Shown here piece after piece: positions 8,775 to 40,238 of a stretch of DNA of 64,000 bases. The notes below the pieces were generated by a model that had not been told where the DNA came from, did not search any database, and worked only from the letters and a program-made list of their open reading frames with translations. Source of the stretch: Nitrosomonas ureae (GTDB lineage: Bacteria > Pseudomonadota > Gammaproteobacteria > Burkholderiales > Nitrosomonadaceae); the NCBI RefSeq assembly GCF_900206265.1, contig NZ_LT907782.1:558001-622000 (forward strand), written 5' to 3'. How positions within the stretch are numbered: the stretch's first letter is position 1; each line of letters begins with the position of its first letter. Position numbers and translations under genes: made by a program.

Positions 8775-10283
8775 GTGATTACCATGGTTATGTATGCAAA
8801 GATACGACGGATGTTTTACCGTGAACATCTGTCAATTAATGAGATTCAACGAAGAACGAGTTTGTCGCGGAACACGGTCAAGAAGTGGTTGAAAGTGCCA
8901 AGCGACAGCGCGGTTAAATATCAAAGGGCGAAGAAGCCTGGCAAGTTGACACCGTTTGAATCCAGGTTAATGTTAGCGCTGGAAGCGGATGCGCGTCGTC
9001 CGAAGAAGGACCGGCGCACGGCGTTGATGTTGTTCAAAGAGATATTGAACGAGGGTTATACAGGCGGTTATACGATTGTATGTGACTTTGTTCGCAACTG
9101 GCGCAATCGAGGGAATCAGAGTAAAGCGGCGTATGTGCCGCTGAAGTTTGCGCTGGGTGAAGCATTCCAGTTTGACTGGAGCGAAGAATGGCTGGTGATC
9201 GGCGGCATCCACCGCAAGGTACTGGCAGCCCATACCAAGCTATGCGCCAGCCGTACTTTCATGTTGTCGGCTTATCCGTCACAAAGTCACGAAATGCTGT
9301 TTGATGCGCATACCCGGGCATTCACTACTTTTGGTGGTGTGCCGAAACGCGGCATTTACGACAACATGAAGACCGCCGTGGACAAGGTGTCTAAGGGCAA
9401 TGGACGTGTGGTGAATACGCGCTTCTTTGCGATGACGGCACATTACCTGTTCGATCCTGATTTCTGCAATGTGGCTTCCGGCTGGGAAAAGGGTGTTGTC
9501 GAGAAGAATGTTCAGGATATGCGCCGCCGCATATGGAATGAAGCCAAGCAACAACAGTTTGGCTCATTCGATGACTTAAACAGATGGCTTGGAACGCGCT
9601 GTCGCGGACTGTGGTCTGAAATCGAGCATCCGGATTATGCGGGCATTACCCTTGCCGATGCACTGGAACAAGAACAACTGTACCTGATGCCGATGCCAGC
9701 ACCGTTCGATGGCTATATCGAAGTATTGGCGCGGGTATCCAGCACGTGTCTGGTTACATTACTGCGCAACCGGTATTCCGTTCCCTGTCGTCTGGTCAAT
9801 CAGGTGGTGGCCGTTCATCAGTATGCCGACCGTATCGAGATCGTCCATGACAATGCCGTAGCAGCCTGTCATAGTCGTCTGATGGATAGCGACCAGGTCA
9901 GCTATAACTGGCAGCACTATATCCCGGTCATTGAGAAGAAACCGGGGGCCTTGCGCAACGGTGCGCCATTCGCCGAACTACCGGCACCTTTGCTGCAACT
10001 GCAGATTGCACTGAGGCGCAGAGAACGTCAGCAGGCCGATCGAATCATGGCAAAAGTGCTCAGCCTGGTGCCGACGCATGGGCTGGAAGCTGTGCTGGTC
10101 GCTGTTGAACTGGTGCTGGAATCCGGCGTGCCCAGTGCCGAGCATGTTGCCAATGTATTGGCACGGCTGAAATACACCGACGTACCAGCGTCAGTGGAAA
10201 CAACACTGAAACTCAATGAAGAACCGCAGGCCGATACGGCGCGCTATGATCGTTTGAACACCAAAGAGGTGCCGCATGTCTGA
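8775..10283 (+). CDS. istA: IS21 transposase IstA
   Basis: This 502-aa DDE transposase starts with a helix-turn-helix ([21 protein letters not shown], about 18-38). The integrase core follows: FQFDWSEEW near residue 135 gives the first catalytic aspartate, [10 protein letters not shown] near 194 the second, and a glutamate in the [13 protein letters not shown] segment near 238-243 the third. It overlaps istB by 8 bases, a translational-coupling arrangement typical of IS21. The product cuts and joins the IS ends with IstB. No frameshift is visible, so the element may be active. Confidence 0.93.
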
Positions 10284-11085
10284 CATACTTGCGCAATTCA
10301 AAGCGCTGAAATTATATGGCATGGCCAGCTCCTATGCTGAACTGAGGCAACAGAATACGCCCGATGTCGCTGACAGTTTTAATTTCGCAGACACACTGCT
10401 AAACCAGTTACTCCAGGCTGAAACAACCGAGCGCAACCTCCGTTCCATTCGCTATCAGACACAAGCTGCCAGATTCCCGGTGCAGCGCCACTTACAGGGC
10501 TTCGACTTCAGTCAGTCCAAAGTCGATCAGCAACTGATTCATCAGCTGGCTACAATGGAATTTACAGCCGCTGCACAGAACCTGGTGTTGGTCGGCGGCA
10601 CCGGTACTGGCAAAACACACCTGGCCATTGCCATCGGCACTTCAGGCATCCAGCATCACAATAAAAAGGTACGCTTCTTCAGCGCCATCGATCTGGCCAA
10701 TAGTCTGGAACAAGAAAAATCAGCGGGCAAACAAGGCAGGCTTGCCTTGCGGCTGTTGCAGATCGACCTGGTCATTCTCGACGAACTGGGCTATCTGCCA
10801 TTCTCACAAGCCGGTGGCGCACTATTGTTTCATCTACTCTCCAGGTTGTATGAACGTACCAGTATCATTATCACCACCAACCTCGCATTCGCAGAATGGA
10901 GCATCGTATTCATCGACGCCAAAATGACTACAGCGCTGCTGGATCGACTCACACACCATTGCCACATCATCGAAACCGGCAACGAGTCTTTCCGCTACAA
11001 ACAAAGTACAGCCAATGCAAAGATCAGAATACAGCAGCGGGAAAAAGAAAAATATTCTCCAGAAGAAAATCTGGTCGATTCGTAG
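10276..11085 (+). CDS. istB: IS21 helper ATPase IstB
   Basis: This 269-aa DnaA-like AAA+ ATPase forms filaments on DNA and assists IstA in target capture. The Walker A motif [11 protein letters not shown] is near residue 107, and Walker [13 protein letters not shown] is near 166. The protein ends in the arginine-rich [20 protein letters not shown] segment that is standard for IstB. Its start lies inside the end of istA. Length and motifs are normal for the family. Confidence 0.94.
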
Positions 11086-11234
11086 TCAATTACAACAAAC
11101 TAAAACATCAACAGGAGGCAAATTACCAATCCAGTCTGGTCGACTTATCCACAGATGCGTAGTATCCTGCGCTCTATTTTCCCCTGGTCAAATTTCAACC
11201 GTAATGGGTGGTCAATTTTAAACCGGTATCAACA

Positions 11235-15890: not shown

Positions 15891-16214
15891 ATGAAAGCTT
15901 TAAAATTAACTGCTAGTTTAATTCTGATCAGCATACTTTTTATTTCTACAATAGCCGTAGGGGAAAATTCGAGCGTTGGCGAATTTGTTAAAGATTCGGC
16001 CATTACGACTCAAATCAAATCTAAAATACTCGTAGCAAAAGATATTGACTCATTGCATATTAAAGTAGATACCGACAACAATGGTATTGTCGTGTTAACC
16101 GGCGCAGTGAAATCAGCGGAAGAAAAGGAAAGAGTGCACAACATTGCACATGATGTCGATGGTGTAAAAAAAGTTCTAAACAATTTAAAAATCGACCCTG
16201 CTCTATTTAATTAA
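15891..16214 (+). CDS. BON-domain periplasmic protein (OsmY-like)
   Basis: This 107-aa protein has a signal peptide (about 1-24, ending AVGE) and one BON domain (about 32-103). The domain motifs are AITTQIKSKILVAKDIDSLH and GIVVLTGAVKSAEEKERVHN, then a VDGVKKVLNNLKI end. BON proteins are small periplasmic, phospholipid-associated proteins often induced by osmotic or envelope stress. The gene stands alone, with TTTGAGGTCAATAAT before the ATG as a ribosome-binding site. It is intact although surrounded by mobile remnants. Confidence 0.85.
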   Translation: MKALKLTASLILISILFISTIAVGENSSVGEFVKDSAITTQIKSKILVAKDIDSLHIKVDTDNNGIVVLTGAVKSAEEKERVHNIAHDVDGVKKVLNNLKIDPALFN

Positions 16215-16283
16215 CCCGATAAGATAAGTTATTGTTGATTTATGCTAATTTATTAAACCCGTTCAGCAAAAGGGTATATCAGA

Positions 16284-16371
16284 ATGAACGACCCCGCCCC
16301 AAGGGGCGAGGTATCAGAGTTGTGAGATGTGGAAAGTTAGAAAAGTACAAGCTGCCTATCCTCGTGTAGTT
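16284..16371 (-). mobile_element. Right-end portion of an IS200/IS605-type element, with the 3' tail of its tnpA
   Basis: On the minus strand, 16371-16337 encodes (L)HEDRQLVLF then stop, the standard end of an IS200-type TnpA. The hairpin around 16288-16310 (CGCCCCAAGGGGCG core in a CCCCGCCCC..GGGGCGAGG context) would be the right-end hairpin of the element. The rest of this element is at 21577-22039. The two parts are separated by an IS3 copy and the 3.9-kb Cas1 element. The assignment rests on the reading frame being restored when both insertions are removed. Confidence 0.75.
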
Positions 16372-16433
16372 TGACCTAGTTTAATGAAACCGGACAGTCC
16401 AGTTAAGAGAAAATAGCTTAACCGGAGGAAGAA

Positions 16434-16730
16434 ATGGTAACGAGAAAACAATATGCAAAAGAATTTAAATTAGATGCTATGAGTCTGGTATTGGATCAGG
16501 ATCACACGACGTCAGAAGTATCTCGAAACCTTGAGATCACGCCTAATATGTTGAGGAGGTGGATCAGGGAATACCAAGCAGATGATGCTGATCAGTCATT
16601 CCGTGGTAATGGGAAGCTGACGCCAGAGCAGGAAGAAATCCGGCAGTTGAAAGCGCAAATCAAGCAGCTCAAGCTGGAGAGGGAAATACTAAAGGAAGCG
16701 ACGGTCTTTTTCGCGAAAGAAACGAAATGA
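16434..16730 (+). CDS. IS3-family OrfA (transposase HTH subunit), copy 1
   Basis: This 98-aa HTH_Tnp_1 protein starts MVTRKQYAKEFKLDAMSLVL and has a helix-turn-helix (SEVSRNLEITPNMLRRWI) followed by a C-terminal leucine-zipper-like coiled coil (EEIRQLKAQIKQLKLEREIL). It ends in the typical EATVFFAKET. GGAGGAAGAA is its ribosome-binding site. It overlaps orfB by 4 bases (ATGA), so the two are translationally coupled or read by frameshift. Alone it cannot transpose. Confidence 0.9.
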   Translation: MVTRKQYAKEFKLDAMSLVLDQDHTTSEVSRNLEITPNMLRRWIREYQADDADQSFRGNGKLTPEQEEIRQLKAQIKQLKLEREILKEATVFFAKETK

Positions 16731-17606
16731 AGTATTCGTTCATTAGCCAAAGGAAAAAGACCTATCCTGTTGGCTTGATGTGCCAACTCATGGGTGTAAG
16801 TCGTAGCGCCTACTATGATTACGTTCGGTGCGTTGATAATTATTCTGAACGCCAGCATCACGAGGAAAAACTTGAAGCGGTGCGGGATATAGCAAAATCC
16901 AGCAATTATAGTTATGGCAGCCGCAGAATCGGAAAAGCGCTGAATGCGCTGGGTTATCCGATTGGTCGCTGGAAAGCTCGACGCCTGATGCGGGAAGCCG
17001 GTGTGCAAGTCAAGCATCGCAGGAAATACAAAGTGACAACCCATAGCGATCACAAACAGCCGGTATTTGAGAACAAGCTGAATCGGCAGTTTGATGTTGC
17101 AGCCCCCAATCAAGTCTACGTTGGCGACATAACCTACATTTGGACTCGAGAAGGCTGGCTGTATCTGGCTGTGATCATTGATTTATTTTCCAGGAAAGTG
17201 GTCGGCTGGAGCATGAGTCCAAGAATGAAGGCCAGACTGGTTTGTGATGCATTAAGAATGGCTATCTGGCAGCGTCAGCCGCAAGCAGGACTGATAGTAC
17301 AGCAGGACTTGCGGGGCCCAATATGCCAGCAGGGAGCACCGGAAGTTTCTGGAAATACACGGTTTTGTGGGTAGTATGAGCCGCACTGGCGATTGTTTCG
17401 ATAATGCTGTGGCAGAAAGCTTTTTCGGCAGCCTCAAACAGGAGCGAATCCACTGGTGCCATTATCAAACTCGTTTCTCAGCTCAGCAAGATGTGTTGCA
17501 GTATATTTCCATGTTTTATAACAGTCATCGACTGCACTCATACTTGGGGTACAAGAGCCCAAATCAATATGAGGTAGAAATTGAAAATGTAAAGAAAGTT
17601 GCTTAA
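16727..17606 (+). pseudogene. IS3-family OrfB transposase, frameshifted, copy 1
   Basis: The first frame (to 17374) holds the HTH_21 segment and the start of the integrase core: VGDITYIWTREGWLYLAVII has the first catalytic aspartate. It then goes out of frame in a disturbed stretch near 17300-17340, where copy 2 reads [20 protein letters not shown]. The original frame resumes from about 17367 ([20 protein letters not shown], which holds the catalytic glutamate) to 17606. The region with the second aspartate is scrambled, so the enzyme is dead. Confidence 0.88.
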
Positions 17607-17621
17607 CTGAGTTGTCCGGTT

Positions 17622-17635
17622 TTACTTGACCGCGT
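17622..17635 (+). repeat. Left copy of 14-bp direct repeat flanking the Cas1 element
   Basis: TTACTTGACCGCGT here and at 21561-21574 are identical and in the same orientation. In the complete IS3 copy at 40206 this sequence occurs once, as the last bases before the terminal CA. It is therefore target sequence that was duplicated, not part of the inserted segment. Confidence 0.85.
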
Positions 17636-17731
17636 GGGGGTAGATATACCCGGGGTAGGGTGTGCCAGGAAAAAATGTCACATAATGTAATCGAGCTTGG
17701 TACCCAATATCAAGGTGGATAAGCTTAAATT

Positions 17732-17804
17732 GTAGTAACTCAGACTCGATCTAACAGGCACATCGCCAAATCGGGTAACTGTCAGATCGAGTCTGAATTA
17801 CTAC
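17732..17804. repeat. 26-bp-arm inverted repeat overlapping the DUF4062 stop codon
   Basis: Arms 17732-17757 and 17779-17804 pair with two mismatches (GTAGTAAYTCAGACTCGATC at the outer side). The TAG stop of the DUF4062 gene is formed inside the right arm. It would fold into a long hairpin in the transcript and may act as its terminator or protect the 3' end. It could equally be a short MITE that supplied the stop codon. Confidence 0.65.
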
Positions 17805-18829
17805 ACCTTATGGACTGCAAGAAGCTTTGTCATGTAGTTATCTCCATATGGGCTAAGCATCCATTTGTCACTGTCTACAATAGAAATTAACTTCAATGCT
17901 CTGAGTTGGATTTTTAGTGTATCAAACGAACTTGAGTAAATTCGAATATTGTAAATCTTTTGATTTTCATGTTTCGTTGCAAAGTATGAAGAGTTGCTTT
18001 CTTCAATGAATTGATTTAGCCGGGATATCACACGATACTCACTTGTCGGACTGATTAAATCGGGCGCAAGGTAGGTAAATAAACTATCCCAGCTAGTCTT
18101 AAATGTATGGTCAAATTCTCCATCCTTCTTCCAATACTTAGCCCCGTTCTTTGCTGTCTCTGCGTTCTTTGTCTCGAAACTAAAATCAACTGAGAATTCG
18201 TCCTTTCCTTTGGATAATTTTTCTGTACCAGCGGGTTCTACCAGTCCAACTTGCCTAAGTCTTTTTTCAAGTTCCTCAATGTGTTTTTTCATATTGAGAA
18301 CCTCCTGAGAATGGTCTTCAGGAATTTGGTTCGCTCGAATCCATCCGGGTGATGGATGATGTTTAATTAATTGAGTAATGCTACGACTCATCTTTGCGCC
18401 GAGATCAGCAGGGCTTGTAAAATACTTGCATAAGCGTTGCTCTGCGAGTTTTCTGAACTGCTCGAGTTTCTTCTTCGCCTGAGAACTCCCTTCCGTTTTC
18501 CCCGCTTCTATCTTAGATGGATCTTCGTGGAGAAAAGCAATCACAGGCTTCACGGTTTCTATAGCATAGCGATACTCCATCTCGGTGAAGCTCATGCCGG
18601 TAGCATTTGAGATCGTGCCATATCTTCCTCCAATTATTACTAAATAATAGTCTGATTCATCGATTACTTTCTTAATCCAGTTCCATTGTTCTTCGTTTGC
18701 GGCTGGAAATAATTCCATACCAGCAGGCATGCAATCGAGTTCAAGAAGCGCCTGCATGATTTCTGCCCGCTCTTCGATGAGGTCGTTGTATGTCGAGCTA
18801 ACAAAAACCTGATAGCGCTTACTGGTCAT
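17801..18829 (-). CDS. DUF4062-domain protein (putative defence or signalling protein)
   Basis: This 342-aa protein opens with the DUF4062 hallmark YQVFVSSTYNDLIEERAEIM. Then come MPAGMELFPAANEEQWNWIK, YYLVIIGGRYGTI and SFTEMEYRYAIE (domain about 4-110), a TIR-like Rossmann fold. A coiled-coil region (about 170-195, MKKHIEELEKRLRQVG) separates it from a C-terminal domain with FKTSWDSLFTYLAPDLI, resembling winged-helix ends of its relatives. DUF4062 proteins occur in bacterial immune systems and mobile islands, but the activity of this form is unknown. It looks intact and is transcribed away from cas1 toward the left terminal repeat. Confidence 0.8.
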   Translation of the reverse strand: MTSKRYQVFVSSTYNDLIEERAEIMQALLELDCMPAGMELFPAANEEQWNWIKKVIDESDYYLVIIGGRYGTISNATGMSFTEMEYRYAIETVKPVIAFLHEDPSKIEAGKTEGSSQAKKKLEQFRKLAEQRLCKYFTSPADLGAKMSRSITQLIKHHPSPGWIRANQIPEDHSQEVLNMKKHIEELEKRLRQVGLVEPAGTEKLSKGKDEFSVDFSFETKNAETAKNGAKYWKKDGEFDHTFKTSWDSLFTYLAPDLISPTSEYRVISRLNQFIEESNSSYFATKHENQKIYNIRIYSSSFDTLKIQLRALKLISIVDSDKWMLSPYGDNYMTKLLAVHKV

Positions 18830-19097
18830 AGTTTGAAGGTATAACGTAATTAAAAAATCATTTAGTCAAATAATCGGGTTGGTATAGTCACATATTTTTG
18901 GATATATAACTCTATCATATTGTATTGAATTAAAATTTTTATGAGGAAATATAGTTGGAATGACTAAAAACTACTCGATCAAGTTCGTGAGAAAAATATG
19001 ATGCATGCACTATAGCTTAATTTTTTTTAGAAATTAGTATAGTAAATTGCTTAATCTTATAATTTAAAGATTGTAATTTTTATTATAGCTTCTGCAT
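18830..19097. other. AT-rich spacer between DUF4062 gene and cas1
   Basis: There are 268 bases of very AT-rich sequence with no gene. It must hold the promoter of the DUF4062 gene on the minus strand, but no clear -35/-10 pair stands out. Confidence 0.4.
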
Positions 19098-19999
19098 TTA
19101 GTCATCTCTTTCAACCAACAATCCCGCATACCACCGAATAACTTGCTTAATCTTAGCATCAGCAATCCAACTCTTCTGAACCACAACTCTCGCAAGCTGT
19201 TGCCTGAGATAAACCGTACCCTCCTCATTCACCTCAAAATCCCGCTTACGCCACTTCTGAGTTTGTATCCAGCCAATCAACTGTTCATCTAAAGTTGGAC
19301 GTAACAATTCGATTAAATCCCAAGCCAAACTTGCTCGCCCATCCAAATGCACATGCAAGGCACCTGCTGCCGGATCATATCCATCAAATACTAACGCCCG
19401 CTCCGCTCAATGCGCCCAGCAAGGATGGTGTAGCCATAATTTAACATTGCATTAACCGGATGCACCGCTTTGCGTCCCGATCCTGTAAGTGGTGAAGTTC
19501 GATTAGAATATTGGCTCCAGTGCTCCGGAAAATCCTTATAGTGAGCTAATTCAAAATTCCATTGATTCCAATACAATTGAGCCGCTCGTCCTTCGGCAAG
19601 CCGAAGCATTTCCAAGCTATTCATCAGAGATATGTCATTTAAAATTCTTCGATAAAGCAGCGTTAATTCAGGTTTTACCCGCACAGCCCCATTTAGTTTT
19701 TCGACGACGATGCTACGAGCAATCAAAAATGAATTAGCCGTATATTGTGCTCGTCTCTGAAAAGGACGATGGGGAGGAATAGCAGGAATCAAATTCAAGC
19801 ACAGATCTCCAACCAAATCTAAGGTATAAAGTGCGATACTTTGTTGTGCTAGCCACTCAATGGCGTCTAATGTGATATATCCTGCATAACCCACGATTAT
19901 AATAGCTTTGATACCATGCACTCCTCGAGCAAGTCTACGGGCCGTATCTTTTGCAGTGAACCAACTGAAGACCAAAAAGCAGTGGGTGTTAAATATCAT
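19098..19999 (-). pseudogene. cas1: Stand-alone Cas1-family integrase, one frameshift
   Basis: Two frames joined by a one-base shift near 19395 give one Cas1-like protein. The first part has GIKAIIIVGYAGYITLDAIE (core beta region), then LRLAEGRAAQLYWNQWNFEL with the catalytic glutamate, WSQYSNRTSPLTGSGRKAVH and PVNAMLNYGYTILAG. The second frame gives ALVFDGYDPAAGALHVHLDG, with the catalytic histidine, and RASLAWDLIELLRP, with the acidic pair. All four metal-site positions known for Cas1 are therefore present. It resembles the Cas1-solo group rather than CRISPR adaptation Cas1. No cas2 or array is nearby. The upstream boundary is uncertain because it overlaps the start of the divergent gene. 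Confidence 0.82.
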
Positions 20000-20109
20000 T
20001 TCTCAGATAGCAAAAACCAAGTTTTTACTAATCTAACACTAGGAGTGTCTAGACAATTCCTTACCGATTTTCTTTCAAAACGAAATATAAGATCGTATAT
20101 TACGTCGGT

Positions 20110-21004
20110 AATGGATAAAAGAGTTGAAGAAGTAATAAAAAGACTATCCGAACGAGATGTAATTATACCTACTACCAAACGAGACTTATCAACTAAAGAT
20201 TACATTAAAAAAATAACTTCTAAAATAAATAAAAATGTTATTGATTGTATTGACAGCGAAACCATACCTCATTTATTGATTAACAAACTTGATTCTAATA
20301 TTTATAATAAAAACTTGATTTACGATGATATTATTAATCAAATTATTGATGATGAAAAAAAAATTACTATATTACGAAATTATTTTGAAAGTACTAATTT
20401 GAAAATAGATGAAAAAATTATTTTGCCTTTTGGTAAAATTTATAATTCACCAGTTGATCTAAAAAATCGTGAGCGTAGTGGCAATCTTGGTCAACTATTA
20501 TTAGCCTCAAATGTAGTATCCTCATATAGAGAGTGGAGCAAAAAAAGAACTAAATTTTCAGAATTTGCTATTTGTTTCCAGAAACCTGACAACGCTGGAA
20601 ATATTGATGGCGGGCTAACTCATATAGTTACTGATTACAAAGAAATTGGATCAAAACCAATTATAAAAAAGATTGAGGAGCTTAAACAGAAGCCGAATTT
20701 TTATTCGCATTTCAATTTTTTATCAACTAATTTTTATGTAATTGGGTTTTATCTAGATAAAATACCTAATATTTTAAAATATGATAAAGATGATACTATT
20801 GATTTTGCAAAAAGTCTTAGTCTTGAATCATATTTAGAACAGCTTCAAATTTTGATAGATATTGAGAAAATTGATTTTTTTCATAATGAGAAATTAATTT
20901 TAATCACTGCACGCTATAAAAACATTCAGAAAATAAATTTTGAAACAGGAAAAACTTCACGGAATTTACAAAGAAGCACCCCGCCGCAAGCAGCGGGGTA
21001 TTAA
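20110..21004 (+). pseudogene. Unrecognised gene of the Cas1 element, 3' end displaced by a hairpin insertion
   Basis: The frame is open from 19916, but its first 80 bases overlap cas1 on the other strand, so I place the start at ATG 20110 (MDKRVEEVIKRLSERDVIIP); starts between are possible. It is extremely AT-rich and lysine/isoleucine/asparagine-rich, unlike all neighbours. No domain is recognised. Conserved-looking parts are IYDDIINQIIDDEKKITILR, RERSGNLGQLLLASNVVSSY and FCSHFNF-like aromatic stretches. The last residues RSTPPQAAGY come from a hairpin element at 20977. Reading continues after that element to 21257 (see next entry). It was probably about 350-370 aa originally. Confidence 0.6.
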
Positions 21005-21074
21005 CTGCGCTCTACAATCTGCTGGTTTTCAACCAGCTTTCGCCCCAAGGGGGCGGGGAATTAAACCCGCAGAG
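20977..21074 (-). mobile_element. About 100-bp IS200/IS605-derived palindromic element (PATE-like)
   Basis: Three hairpins follow each other: ACCCCGCCGCAAGCAGCGGG (20978-21000), GCTGGTT-TTC-AACCAGC (21021-21037) and CGCCCC-AA-GGGGGCG (21041-21055). The last and its flank GGGGAATTAAACCCGCAGAG match the left-end region of the IS200-type element at 21998-22039. The first resembles a right-end hairpin. It therefore looks like the two ends of an IS200/IS605-type element with the transposase gene deleted. It has cut the gene at 20110. The exact ends are approximate. Confidence 0.6.
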
Positions 21075-21257
21075 ATTAAAATCCCCATTTCCCGTCCAGA
21101 TTAATGGCGAGTGCCTTGAAAATTTTGATTCATTTGTTGCTAAAAGATCATGCCTTGAATCTTTTGTAGATGCAATTCTAGTACTTAAACAACTCGGGCA
21201 AAACTTCATTACGGTTGACCAACACGCATTCGATACAACATACCTTCTGCCGTAATG
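21075..21257 (+). pseudogene. Displaced 3' end of the unrecognised gene
   Basis: After the hairpin element an open frame continues SPFPVQINGECLENFDSFVA, KRSCLESFVDAILVLKQLGQ and NFITVDQHAFDTTYLLP to a TAA at 21255. It has no start codon or ribosome-binding site, and it has a protein-like composition different from the AT-rich spacer after it. The simplest reading is the C-terminus of the gene beginning at 20110. I cannot name the family. Confidence 0.5.
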
Positions 21258-21514
21258 CGCGAGTTCCGCTCGTTATTAATTTTTCTTAGTGCAGCCATTT
21301 TCTCTAACTTCGATCATAATTCATCACGGAGGATCAATCGTGGCATAGCAATTGTTTTATTGGTGAAGTCGGAATCTCGTTTATTTTTTATTTATGAACA
21401 CGTTTCTCTAAAACGTCAAGTATTCCTTAAATTTTCATATATTTTTTTCGTTATTTACATGTTAAGCAAATATAAGATTATTTTTTTTAGTTCAACTTTA
21501 TTTTTTTTCACGTT
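21258..21514. other. AT-rich spacer inside the right end of the Cas1 element
   Basis: This is strongly T-rich on the plus strand, with runs of seven or more T near 21440-21500. I see no gene. It directly precedes the right terminal inverted repeat. Confidence 0.4.
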
Positions 21515-21560
21515 TGTGACATTTTTTCCTGGCACATCCTACCCCGGGTATATCTACCCC

Positions 21561-21576
21561 TTACTTGACCGCGTCA
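21561..21576 (+). repeat. Right copy of 14-bp duplication plus terminal CA of IS3 copy 1
   Basis: TTACTTGACCGCGT (21561-21574) repeats 17622-17635. The next two bases CA complete the IS3 right end, and GTT (21577-21579) is the second copy of the IS3 target duplication. Confidence 0.85.
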
Positions 21577-21988
21577 GTTTTTGATACTCTTTCCCTTGCC
21601 CCTTAACATAGTTCCTTATCGTGTGTTCATCGCCATGACGACCAACAGTACTCGCAAAATAGCCATCACTCCAAAACTCACCGTCCCAGAATTGTTTTTT
21701 GACATGAGGACACAAGCGAAATATCTCACTTGCTGTGATACTCTTAATCAGTGTTACCAGTTTTGTTACACTATATGAAGGAACACTTTGTACTAAAAAA
21801 TGAACATGATCTTCATCTGTTCCAATCTCCAGAAATTTCAACTAATAACGCTTCTCCAGCTCAAGACACACGTCTTGCAGTGTCTTATCTGCAGCCTCAT
21901 CGAACACAGCACGACGATATTTCGCTGGAAATACCAAGTGATAAAACAATGTTGTTACGTTATGTCGCTTATGTATATATTCGCTCAC
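21577..21988 (-). pseudogene. tnpA: IS200/IS605-type transposase TnpA, split by insertions and with one stop
   Basis: Read from GTG 21988, the sequence is SEYIHKRHNVTTLFYHLVFP, AKYRRAVFDEAADKTLQDVC and LELEKRY. A TAG stop follows at 21842-21844, then LKFLEIGTDEDHVHFLVQSV, with the HxH (HUH) metal motif, and later TIRNYVKGQGKEYQK, with the catalytic tyrosine. At 21577 the frame runs into the IS3 end. Removing the IS3 copy and the Cas1 element restores KLHEDRQLVLF at 16371-16337. The full protein would be about 146 aa, normal for this single-strand Y1 transposase. The internal stop probably replaced a glutamine codon. Confidence 0.82.
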
Positions 21989-22039
21989 GCGAATATTTTA
22001 CGCCCCAAGGGGCGAGGAATTAAACCCTGCAGAGATTAA
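21977..22039 (-). repeat. Left end of the IS200/IS605-type element with two hairpins
   Basis: ATATTCGC-TCAC-GCGAATAT (21977-21996) is a perfect hairpin whose loop contains the GTG start codon of tnpA on the minus strand. Next to it is CGCCCC-AA-GGGGCG (22001-22014), followed by a flank shared with 21056-21078. IS200 elements are known to hide the tnpA start in a 5' hairpin. Confidence 0.65.
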
Positions 22040-22066
22040 GCTACTTAAAGATTTTAAGATGAAATT

Positions 22067-22125
22067 CACCCATAATTAATAACTGCATTACATGTATCTG
22101 AAACAATATTCAAGCATTGCGCCTG
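22067..22125 (-). repeat. Degenerate copy of the zot 3' end
   Basis: The stretch starting CACCCATAATTAATAACTGC matches, at about 85 percent by eye, 22638-22700 (CACCCATAATTAATAGCCGC), which is the end of zot and its downstream flank. Both are in the same orientation. This suggests two filamentous-phage copies, or a local duplication, with the DNA between them now different. Confidence 0.5.
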
Positions 22126-22246
22126 GGTGCACATCCTTCACACTCGTCGACAACCATTTATATAATGGTTGGTATTATGGAGGGAAGGGAAGTAAAAGTG
22201 TAAAAAAAAAACAGGAACATACCTGTTTACGCAAACTTGAGAACTC

Positions 22247-22546
22247 CTACATTTTGCCCCTGGCAAAGCCTCGGAGCCTCCTTTCAAGATTTGCTACTAG
22301 AGTTAGTTTAAAAGGTTTTTCAATTCTAAAGCAGTTTTTACGATTCCGACCTTCTAGATCAACAAAAGAAAAATAATAAAGCTCCTCAGTTCCTGCTTTC
22401 ACAAAATTATTTCTTAAAGCTTTTTGCCAACAAAGATCAAAATCTTTATGTACCGTACTTTTTTCTTTTAATGGAATCGTTGAGTAGGGATAACAAGCTA
22501 CAAATTGATCATTCCGAACTGCCCGAATTAATATTGCAACTTTCAT
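22247..22546 (-). CDS. Hypothetical protein between zot-like repeats
   Basis: I do not recognise this 99-aa protein. GGAAAGACTAT before the ATG gives a usable ribosome-binding site. It begins MKVAILIRAVRNDQFVACYP and has a central DFDLCWQKALRNNF stretch and a basic C-terminus (ANLERRLRGFARGKM). It has no signal peptide or membrane helix. It lies between the two copies of the zot 3' end and might be a filamentous-phage gene or unrelated cargo. Confidence 0.4.
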   Translation of the reverse strand: MKVAILIRAVRNDQFVACYPYSTIPLKEKSTVHKDFDLCWQKALRNNFVKAGTEELYYFSFVDLEGRNRKNCFRIEKPFKLTLVANLERRLRGFARGKM

Positions 22547-22685
22547 ATAGTCTTTCCAAACATGCGGTTAGTGTCTGTTGTCAATCTAAGAAATTCATTA
22601 ACGGCATTGATTTCTCTCCTCTAAAGTTTATTTGTGGCAATCCACCCATAATTAATAGCCGCATTACAGGTATCCGGAACAATAT

Positions 22686-23488
22686 TCACTCGTTGCGCTT
22701 GATGGCCGTAGCAGATGCAATTTGATTTGCTTGAAACGCACGCTGCAACCTGCGACCAGTCGACGGCGTCAGATAACATTGAGAGCGACTTGGTAATGAA
22801 TGACCGGAATTACGCTTGAAGGCTGTATTTCGCCCTCCTGTGTTGATTTGTTGGTTTTTTCCTCTAATTTCTTGCATCGGATCAGCTAATCGGTCAGTAA
22901 TGCGTCCATAAGTGATTATGGCCATAGCCGGAACTGCGAAAAAGAGGAAAATTGCTGCATAAACCATTTTGGGAATTGGGCGCTTTGGTTTTTCTACATG
23001 CAGGCTAGCCGAGTAATACAATTCGAACGCTTTCTTTTCCAGTTTGTACGGTTTCTTGACTGCATTCGCCCGGTTGGTTTTCAGTTTTGGGTTAGCGCAG
23101 TATTTCGACCATTCATATTGCGAGGCCTTTGCACGGTTACTACGCGGCACGATAATTGCGTTAAAAATTCGCGAAAAATGCTCATTTACCCCGTGTAAAC
23201 TCCGCTTTTTCGCAAATTTTTGCCTTATTCTCGTACCGCTCATGACACCGTGCAAAGGTCTCATTGCTTGTTACCTGACCATTCCTGGCTTAAATGAATA
23301 TGCCGATCAGCATTTTCGAGTACGAACGGATGCACGAATTTGGGCGATTGCGTGATTACCAGGAAATCAAGCCCGTGCTTTCTATGTTGGGAAAGATATT
23401 TGATGTACTCTGGAGGGTCTTTCAGATCGATGGCCGGCCACGGATAAGCGGCTTCATCGACAACTATAAGGCTTCTGAGGTATGCTGA
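22686..23488 (-). pseudogene. zot: Filamentous-phage Zot/pI-like assembly ATPase, 5'-truncated and split by a MITE
   Basis: Before the MITE the frame reads SLIVVDEAAYPWPAIDLKDP (Walker B type), PEYIKYLSQHRKHGLDFLVI and TQSPKFVHPFVLENADRHIH. After it come QYEWSKYCANPKLKTNRANA, VKKPYKLEKKAFELYYSASL and the membrane helix VYAAIFLFFAVPAMAIITYG. This is the Zot family used by inoviruses for virion export. Removing the 141-bp insert and one ATTGC restores a continuous frame, so the insertion is the disabling event. The Walker A part is missing beyond about 23488, where IS3-type sequence begins. Confidence 0.82.
23122..23262. mobile_element. 141-bp MITE inserted in zot
   Basis: Its ends are inverted: GAGGCCTTTGCACGGT on the left and, read on the other strand, GAGACCTTTGCACGGT on the right (one mismatch). 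A 5-bp duplication ATTGC lies on both sides (23117-23121 and 23263-23267). It has no coding capacity; the inside has a further imperfect hairpin of TTCGCGAAAAA / TTTTTCGCAAA type. The GAGACCTTTGCA end resembles ends of some IS5-family elements, but the 5-bp duplication is not typical of them, so the parent element is uncertain. Confidence 0.82.
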
Positions 23489-40205: not shown

Positions 40206-40238
40206 TGACGCGGTCAAGTAAAAAACTGGACAACTCAG

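What the first reader, a model, noticed from the sequence alone, without database searches (positions are those of the whole stretch)
17622..21576. A Cas1-bearing, casposon-like element with 46-bp TIRs and a 14-bp target duplication
Seen: inverted repeats at 17637-17682 and 21515-21560 (45 of 46 match), flanked by identical TTACTTGACCGCGT on both sides. In the complete IS3 copy at 40206 this 14-mer occurs once, so it was duplicated by the insertion. The only integrase-like gene inside is a stand-alone cas1 with the catalytic Glu, His and acidic pair visible. No cas2, other cas gene or CRISPR array is in the window. Known: casposon Cas1 integration duplicates 14-15 bp, and casposons have TIRs. 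Described ones usually carry polB and are larger. Inference: this is a small Cas1-solo transposon in a nitrifier-like bacterium, carrying a DUF4062 gene and an unknown gene as cargo.
Basis: partly seen in the sequence, partly recalled or inferred. Interest (0 to 1): 0.95.

Follow-up and report, generated by a model that had tools for sequence, protein, structure and literature searches.

The report
Crippled casposon lodged in transposon end
This 3.9-kb segment of a Nitrosomonas-type bacterium is a crippled casposon, a mobile element predicted to be inserted by a relative of the CRISPR protein Cas1; its own Cas1 gene is broken, a relative with an intact Cas1 gene sits elsewhere in the same genome and would be needed to move it, and members of its family are found mostly at one short sequence that often lies at the ends of other transposons.

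Summary
Observation confirmed: 46-bp terminal inverted repeats (45/46) flanked by a 14-bp duplication of a sequence present once in the other IS3 copy. The cas1 is not a working stand-alone gene: it lacks its first ~220 codons and its frame is broken. The same genome holds a 12.4-kb relative with the same kind of ends, its own 14-bp duplication, an intact 506-aa casposase and a PolB gene (one in-frame stop). So the element is a non-autonomous casposon derivative. All five complete elements of this lineage found have 14-bp duplications (one could be read as 15). Their flanks share TGGTCAA (17 of 21 distinct ends, up to one mismatch) versus 0 of 23 ends of the sister lineage. Targets include IS3 and IS21 ends; an IS21 in this window holds the exact empty site of another copy. 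This casposase clade has an IS21 IstA-like N-terminus where the sister clade, like the published Nitrosomonas casposon, has a zinc-binding-type one. Inferred: Cas1-catalysed insertion. Unresolved: movement in trans versus decay in place, and what the IstA-like domain binds. New variant of a known kind.

The parts
17622..17635 (+). 14-bp target duplication, left copy (TTACTTGACCGCGT), near the end of an IS3-family element
17637..17682 (+). terminal inverted repeat (cas1-3'-proximal end; one extra G at 17636)
17726..17810 (.). 32-bp imperfect hairpin inside the end; part of it has a counterpart near the same end of the copy in L014
17801..18829 (-). DUF4062 gene (342 aa), cargo in the place where the 12.4-kb copy carries a NACHT/Mrr-like gene; copy c5 (L063) also carries a DUF4062-containing protein
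   Evidence: PF13271 E 5e-28; phrog_15411 E 5.6e-98
19098..19999 (-). cas1 remnant: codons 221 to about 501 of a 506-codon casposase gene, frame broken by a net 5-nt insertion near 19390
19916..21004 (+). 362-aa ORF without relatives found (the only hit is its own 297-aa form); probably cargo; its start overlaps the cas1 junction and its 3' end carries a palindromic IS200-like remnant
21515..21560 (-). terminal inverted repeat (distal end)
21561..21574 (+). 14-bp target duplication, right copy; IS3 ends at 21576
16434..17621 (+). host IS3-family element into whose end the element inserted
40206..40221 (-). end of the second IS3 copy: unoccupied paralogous target site
11172..11227 (+). right end of an IS21-family element (istA 8775-10283, istB 10276-11085): exact unoccupied counterpart (14-mer at 11182-11195) of the site filled by the casposon in L014

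Best explanation
The element is a gene-poor, apparently internally deleted derivative of a casposon whose insertion into the end of an IS3 element was likely catalysed by a Cas1 (casposase) with an IstA-like N-terminus. Shown: TIRs, a 14-bp duplication, an empty paralogous site, a broken cas1, and a 12.4-kb relative in the same genome with the same kind of ends, its own 14-bp duplication in another IS3 end, an intact casposase gene and a PolB gene with one in-frame stop. Shown: across the genus this lineage sits mostly at a TGGTCAA-type site, while its sister lineage does not. Inferred: the casposase joins the TIR ends to the two strands of the target 14 nt apart and host repair fills the gaps; the element can now move only if a casposase such as that of the 12.4-kb copy acts on its TIRs in trans; the N-terminal IstA-like domain helps recognise either the target or the TIRs.
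Against: No transposition was observed. Whether the deletion came before or after insertion is open; the low dN/dS also fits decay in place, and the deletion junction occurs nowhere else in the 85 genomes searched. The polB of the 12.4-kb copy has an in-frame stop, so that copy may not be fully autonomous either. IS21 elements with the matching IstA type have ends of the CTGCCAC kind where ends could be seen, not TGGTCAA, and the IstA of the IS21 whose end is a target shows no similarity to the casposase N-terminus: the simple idea that the domain reads its donor's motif is not supported. 4 of 18 sites lack the motif (counted by hand). TGGTCAA was chosen from this same set, so its 17 of 21 is descriptive; the sister lineage is the control. 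In one search the reversed control pattern also had 2 matches (at up to 1 mismatch) against 3 for the real one, though the 3 real ones are exact. Long branches weaken the trees.
Confidence: 0.84

Rival explanations
1. A full-size casposon inserted here with its own intact Cas1 and then lost polB, HNH, the HTH genes and the start of cas1 in place; it was never mobile as a short element. (This shares the casposase insertion with the best explanation and differs only in the order of events, so the two confidences overlap.)
For: The cas1 remnant shows dN/dS of about 0.13, so it was maintained until recently. The orientation of the remaining cargo ORFs fits one internal deletion. The junction was found only at this one place in 85 genomes.
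Against: TSD 14 of 14 and TIRs 45 of 46 intact, so the element has the parts needed in cis; but neither order is shown.
Confidence: 0.5
2. A self-sufficient small Cas1-solo transposon.
For: Cas1 is the only integrase-like gene found inside.
Against: The cas1 lacks 220 codons and is frame-broken. The four other complete elements are 9-14 kb with polB genes.
Confidence: 0.03
3. A MITE-like element moved by a DDE transposase that merely carries a cas1 fragment.
For: Many bacterial short elements with TIRs are of this kind (general knowledge).
Against: Related TIRs bound elements with cas1 in 5 of 5 complete cases, with no DDE match among the proteins scanned (short ORFs were not scanned). The 14-bp duplication recurs in 5 of 5 complete sister casposons and is the length of the M. 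mazei casposon TSD (PMC10359463, passages).
Confidence: 0.03
4. Remnant of a CRISPR adaptation module caught between two chance repeats.
For: The gene matches Pfam Cas1.
Against: This genome's CRISPR Cas1 (beside a 1044-aa Cas9) is a separate, distant protein. No cas2 was seen among the ORFs listed for c2-c5.
Confidence: 0.01

Closest known systems
Family 3 casposons, NitAL212-C1 of Nitrosomonas sp. AL212 (Krupovic et al. 2014, PMC4046053; passages and section 7 read)
   Same: Bacterial host of the same genus name, Cas1 with an added N-terminal domain, PolB, TIRs, TSD; HNH and HTH genes are reported for most family 3 members.
   Different: That Cas1 is described with a zinc-binding domain at the N-terminus, as the Zn-type clade here seems to have. 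The casposase studied here has an IS21 IstA-like N-terminus and sits at TGGTCAA. The window copy is a short derivative without polB. Family 3 casposons are said to lie in intergenic regions (PMC6614799, passage).
Methanosarcina mazei casposon MetMaz-C1 and its synthetic mini-casposon (PMC10359463, passages read)
   Same: 14-bp TSD. A short TIR-bounded element without casposon genes was integrated in vivo using chromosomally encoded functions, the arrangement proposed here.
   Different: Archaeal; man-made, with resistance markers. Ours is natural.
IS21-family transposase IstA, N-terminal region
   Same: 30% identity over 126 aa with one IS21 subgroup, E 3e-12; PHROG 'transposase' and NCBIfam IS66 TnpA models also match this part.
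   Different: The casposase has no DDE domain, and its targets do not resemble the ends of that IS21 subgroup.
CRISPR Cas1-Cas2 adaptation modules
   Same: Cas1 fold and conserved active-site columns.
   Different: No cas2 seen in the elements; a separate clade in the trees.

Membership tests
casposon (window copy, 17637-21560) | terminal inverted repeats | tested here: met
casposon (window copy, 17637-21560) | target site duplication of about 14-15 bp | tested here: met
casposon (window copy, 17637-21560) | intact cas1 (casposase) gene | tested here: not met
   5'-truncated and frame-broken: a derivative, not a complete casposon
casposon (window copy, 17637-21560) | family B DNA polymerase gene | tested here: not met
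   no polB remnant
casposon (12.4-kb copy, same genome) | intact cas1, TIRs, TSD | tested here: met
casposon (12.4-kb copy, same genome) | family B DNA polymerase gene | tested here: met
   phrog_1907 DNA polymerase E 1.9e-5; aligns to the 1103-aa protein of L014 at 74% over 1097 columns, with one in-frame stop. The homologue in L058 reaches Pfam's cut-off for PF03175 DNA_pol_B_2 (25.9 bits against 25.8); those of L063 and L014 fall below it. No PDB sequence match.
casposon (12.4-kb copy, same genome) | HNH endonuclease gene (families 2 and 3) | tested here: inconclusive
   Cys/His pattern seen in the ORF. No Pfam match for this or the L058 and L063 homologues, no PHROG match for this copy; the L014 homologue matches phrog_119 HNH only at E 0.0053.
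casposase group of Cas1 | groups with characterised casposases, apart from CRISPR Cas1 | tested here: met
   long branches noted. The trees used 21 of the 34 homologues; 20 fall on the casposase side and P0033 on the CRISPR side. Two genus rows labelled CRISPR (L032, L034) were not checked for neighbouring cas genes.
casposase group of Cas1 | integrates TIR-ended DNA in vitro | not testable with these tools
   needs purified protein
NitAL212-C1 type (zinc domain at the N-terminus of Cas1) | N-terminal zinc-binding domain | tested here: not met
   IstA-like N-terminus instead; the Zn-type proteins L020-L023 and L025 are a separate clade (zinc binding inferred from the Cys pattern)

The most novel reading that the evidence does not exclude
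A casposase lineage replaced its zinc-binding domain with the DNA-binding module of an IS21 transposase and thereby became a site-specific invader of transposon-end sequences; copies that lost their genes, such as this one, survive as natural mini-casposons moved in trans. That would make casposons parasites of insertion sequences, with a target-choosing module swapped onto Cas1.
Probability: 0.33. Interest if true: 0.78.

Novelty: new variant of a known kind. Interest (0 to 1): 0.6.

Why it matters
Casposons are the proposed source of CRISPR adaptation, and how Cas1 chooses its target is a central open point. Two sister lineages in one genus share the Cas1 core and the 14-bp duplication but differ in N-terminal domain and in target preference: a natural domain-swap experiment that can be tested in vitro. 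A naturally gene-poor casposon in the same genome as a relative with intact cas1 would be a native counterpart of the synthetic mini-casposon. In the open-access library, of the 5 papers holding both 'casposon' and 'non-autonomous' and the 1 holding 'casposon' and 'IS21', the passages shown describe no non-autonomous or IS21-fused casposon. Subscription papers and supplements were not seen.

Tried and rejected
The TIR core is absent from IMG/VR by exact pattern. No close plasmid relative: 69 records match, all under 60% identity and none covering 80% of the query; the 15 listed are annotated CRISPR Cas1. The 362-aa ORF has no relatives found. Rfam: nothing at gathering score in 16000-23000. 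No tRNA gene in 8 of the 9 loci scanned nor in the window; one tRNA-Met in L010, about 6 kb from the site. PolB of L014 has no sequence match in the PDB at E 0.1. The cas1-ORF junction of the short form was searched in 85 genomes: the whole 301 bases match only the window itself, and the other six matches cover the cas1 side alone.

The first structure model (16 sequences, pLDDT 48) was too poor to use; the second (36 sequences, pLDDT 84) was used. The fold comparison covered residues 192-505 only, so the N-terminal fold is untested by structure; the sequence search of that part against the PDB gave nothing useful.

Idea tested and not supported: that the TGGTCAA target equals the terminal repeat of the IS21 subgroup that resembles the casposase N-terminus. 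Rejected: that all targets are IS ends. By my count, 7 of 18 distinct sites are IS-associated (c1, c2, c3, c5, G020 and G058 at IS ends; c4 inside a transposase ORF); 14 of 18 have the motif with up to 1 mismatch. Insertion direction relative to the motif is the same in the five complete copies (c5 with the variant TGGACAA), but one single-ended copy (L059) appears reversed, so no rule is claimed.

Literature seen: PMC4046053 (passages, section 7), PMC9939771, PMC10359463, PMC6452270, PMC8987985, PMC5718144, PMC7043111, PMC9816338, PMC6614799 and PMC5481204 (passages only); other titles from search listings.
Full report
OBSERVATION. The inverted repeats, the 14-bp direct repeat and its single occurrence in the second IS3 copy are real. 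The two IS3 copies are 96.5% identical over 1214 aligned bases, and both end ...CGCGTCA; the element lies 2 bp inside that end. Joining the flanks after removing one repeat gives a continuous IS3 end.

THE CAS1 IS BROKEN. Two ORFs in different frames cover Cas1 profile positions 29-204 and 219-280. Against the intact relative, codons 1-220 are absent and a net 5-nt insertion breaks the frame. The residues of the active site (Glu in AEGRAA, His in ALHVH, acidic pair in DLIE; roles recalled; E342, H420, D432 and E435 are invariant over 36 rows) are present but on two fragments. dN/dS against the intact copy is 0.042/0.310 and 0.023/0.185, against 0.060/0.959 between the two intact copies c2 and c3: the gene was maintained for most of its history.

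A FULL-SIZE RELATIVE IN THE SAME GENOME. A pattern search of the genome with part of the TIR (up to 3 mismatches) found one further site. It belongs to a 12.4-kb element, G000:C1:2837663-2850068 (L010, L005), with TSD ACCTGGTCAAGTAA on both sides, again in an IS3 end. Genes in order: an OLD/AriA-like ATPase with a TOPRIM domain (PADLOC Old E 1e-33), a PolB gene with one in-frame stop, a likely HNH protein, an HTH protein, a 244-aa protein with a weak MerR match, the 506-aa casposase, and a NACHT/Mrr-like protein. A third copy of 9.2 kb in a public MAG (JAFEEI010000069.1, L014) has an uninterrupted 1103-aa PolB-like protein and TSD CCCTGGTCAAATTT (14 bp, or 15 because of a run of C). c4 and c5 (about 14 kb each) carry uninterrupted PolB genes (1160 and 1146 aa), the same core genes and different cargo: RelA/SpoT-like and ORC-CDC6-like proteins in c4; a DUF4062/NB-ARC-like/TPR protein, a possible C92 peptidase (below cut-off) and a methyltransferase in c5. 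Compared with these, the window copy keeps the ends and the 3' part of cas1 only.

FAMILY IN THE GENUS. Six loci in five genomes (own genome, G003, G020, G033 and two in G083) match all or most of the 506-aa protein at 71-100%; G033's is the MAG copy L014, and G020's is interrupted. Shorter fragments occur too, including the window copy and G080. The TIR core (up to 2 mismatches) occurs in 13 of 85 genomes; the reversed control pattern had two matches. Five elements have both ends and all duplicate 14 bp (c1 window, c2, c3 L014, c4 L058, c5 L063). A sister lineage with 41-45% identical Cas1 and a Cys-rich N-terminus has different TIRs, and its five complete pairs also duplicate exactly 14 bp. 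The casposase was found in 2 of 399 genomes sampled across the order at E 1e-40, both in this genus.

TARGET. Outside the TIR, 17 of 21 distinct ends of the window's lineage have TGGTCAA with at most one mismatch within 20 bp (12 exact), against 0 of 23 of the sister lineage; letter shuffles give 4% (24 rows before removing 3 repeats; one row, L059, added by hand; the left end of c5 is not among the rows). Both ends of one insertion share the duplication, so by site it is 14 of 18 (my count). The motif was read off the same data, so the contrast with the sister lineage is the test. In this genome TGACSNGGTCAAGTAA (up to 1 mismatch) occurs three times, all exact: two casposon insertions and the free IS3 end at 40206; the reversed control pattern occurs twice. 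The insertion in L014 lies in the first terminal repeat of an IS21 end, and the window holds an unoccupied IS21 with the identical sequence. c4 is inside a transposase ORF (DUF772, E 2.5e-14) and c5 beside an IS3-family transposase gene. 7 of 18 sites are IS-associated; the rest are near ordinary genes or unclear.

THE ENZYME. The C-terminal part is Cas1: closest in sequence and fold to the M. mazei casposase. Trees separate it, with that casposase, from CRISPR Cas1 including this genome's Cas9-associated Cas1 (39 rows, 36 rows, with the N-termini cut off and without the Cas9-associated row and two genus rows); the tool warns of long branches. The window's lineage is one clade (100/100). Its N-terminus matches the IS21 transposase IstA of one subgroup (30% over 126 aa, E 3e-12; that protein is NF033546, E 8.8e-91), and related PHROG and NCBIfam models. 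Against a simple reading: that IS21 subgroup has other terminal repeats where they could be seen (L114, L115), and the IstA of the IS21 that serves as target shows no similarity. The domain may read the target, the TIRs, or both.

MECHANISM. Inferred by analogy with characterised casposases: two casposase-catalysed joinings of TIR 3' ends to the two strands, 14 nt apart, and host repair. The M. mazei work showed that a TIR-bounded mini-casposon is integrated with functions supplied from elsewhere (PMC10359463, passages), and that element also has a 14-bp TSD. So movement of the window copy in trans is plausible.

NOVELTY. Casposons in Nitrosomonas are known (PMC4046053). What seems new is the IstA-like/Cas1 fusion, the sequence-preferring targets that include IS ends, and a naturally gene-poor derivative. 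This rests on open-access text only.

Noticed in passing
L082:2170-2288 (G035 contig C20): The end of a sister-lineage (Zn-type) casposon abuts exactly the first base of a 29-nt type I-E-like CRISPR repeat (two repeats, one 32-nt spacer). The genome has no other copy of the repeat and no second TIR was found. Possibly a casposon inserted at a CRISPR repeat boundary.
   Followed up: partly
L062:880-980 (G020 contig C9): A TIR of the IstA-type lineage is followed within about 70 bp, further in, by a TIR of the Zn-type lineage: nested or juxtaposed casposon ends.
   Followed up: no
L011:5953-10022 (own genome, G000:C1:2345952-2350021): Separate CRISPR locus with a 1044-aa Cas9 and a 309-aa Cas1, type II-C-like by layout; unrelated to the element.
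   Followed up: partly
window 20975-21080: Palindromic sequence whose right part (21038-21079) resembles 21998-22039 beyond an IS200-like Y1 transposase ORF (21554-21841); it seems to interrupt the 3' end of the 362-aa orphan ORF.
   Followed up: no
L076:1759-15988 (G073 contig C82): Zn-type casposon with 602-bp inverted repeats (89% identical) and TSD GTTGGTAGAAGCGC.
   Followed up: no
L005:3183-5870, L010:7883-9763, L063:2236-4836: Casposon cargo looks defence-like in part: NACHT/Mrr-like protein, OLD/AriA-like ATPase with TOPRIM, and a DUF4062/NB-ARC-like/TPR protein. DUF4062 recurs in the window copy.
   Followed up: partly
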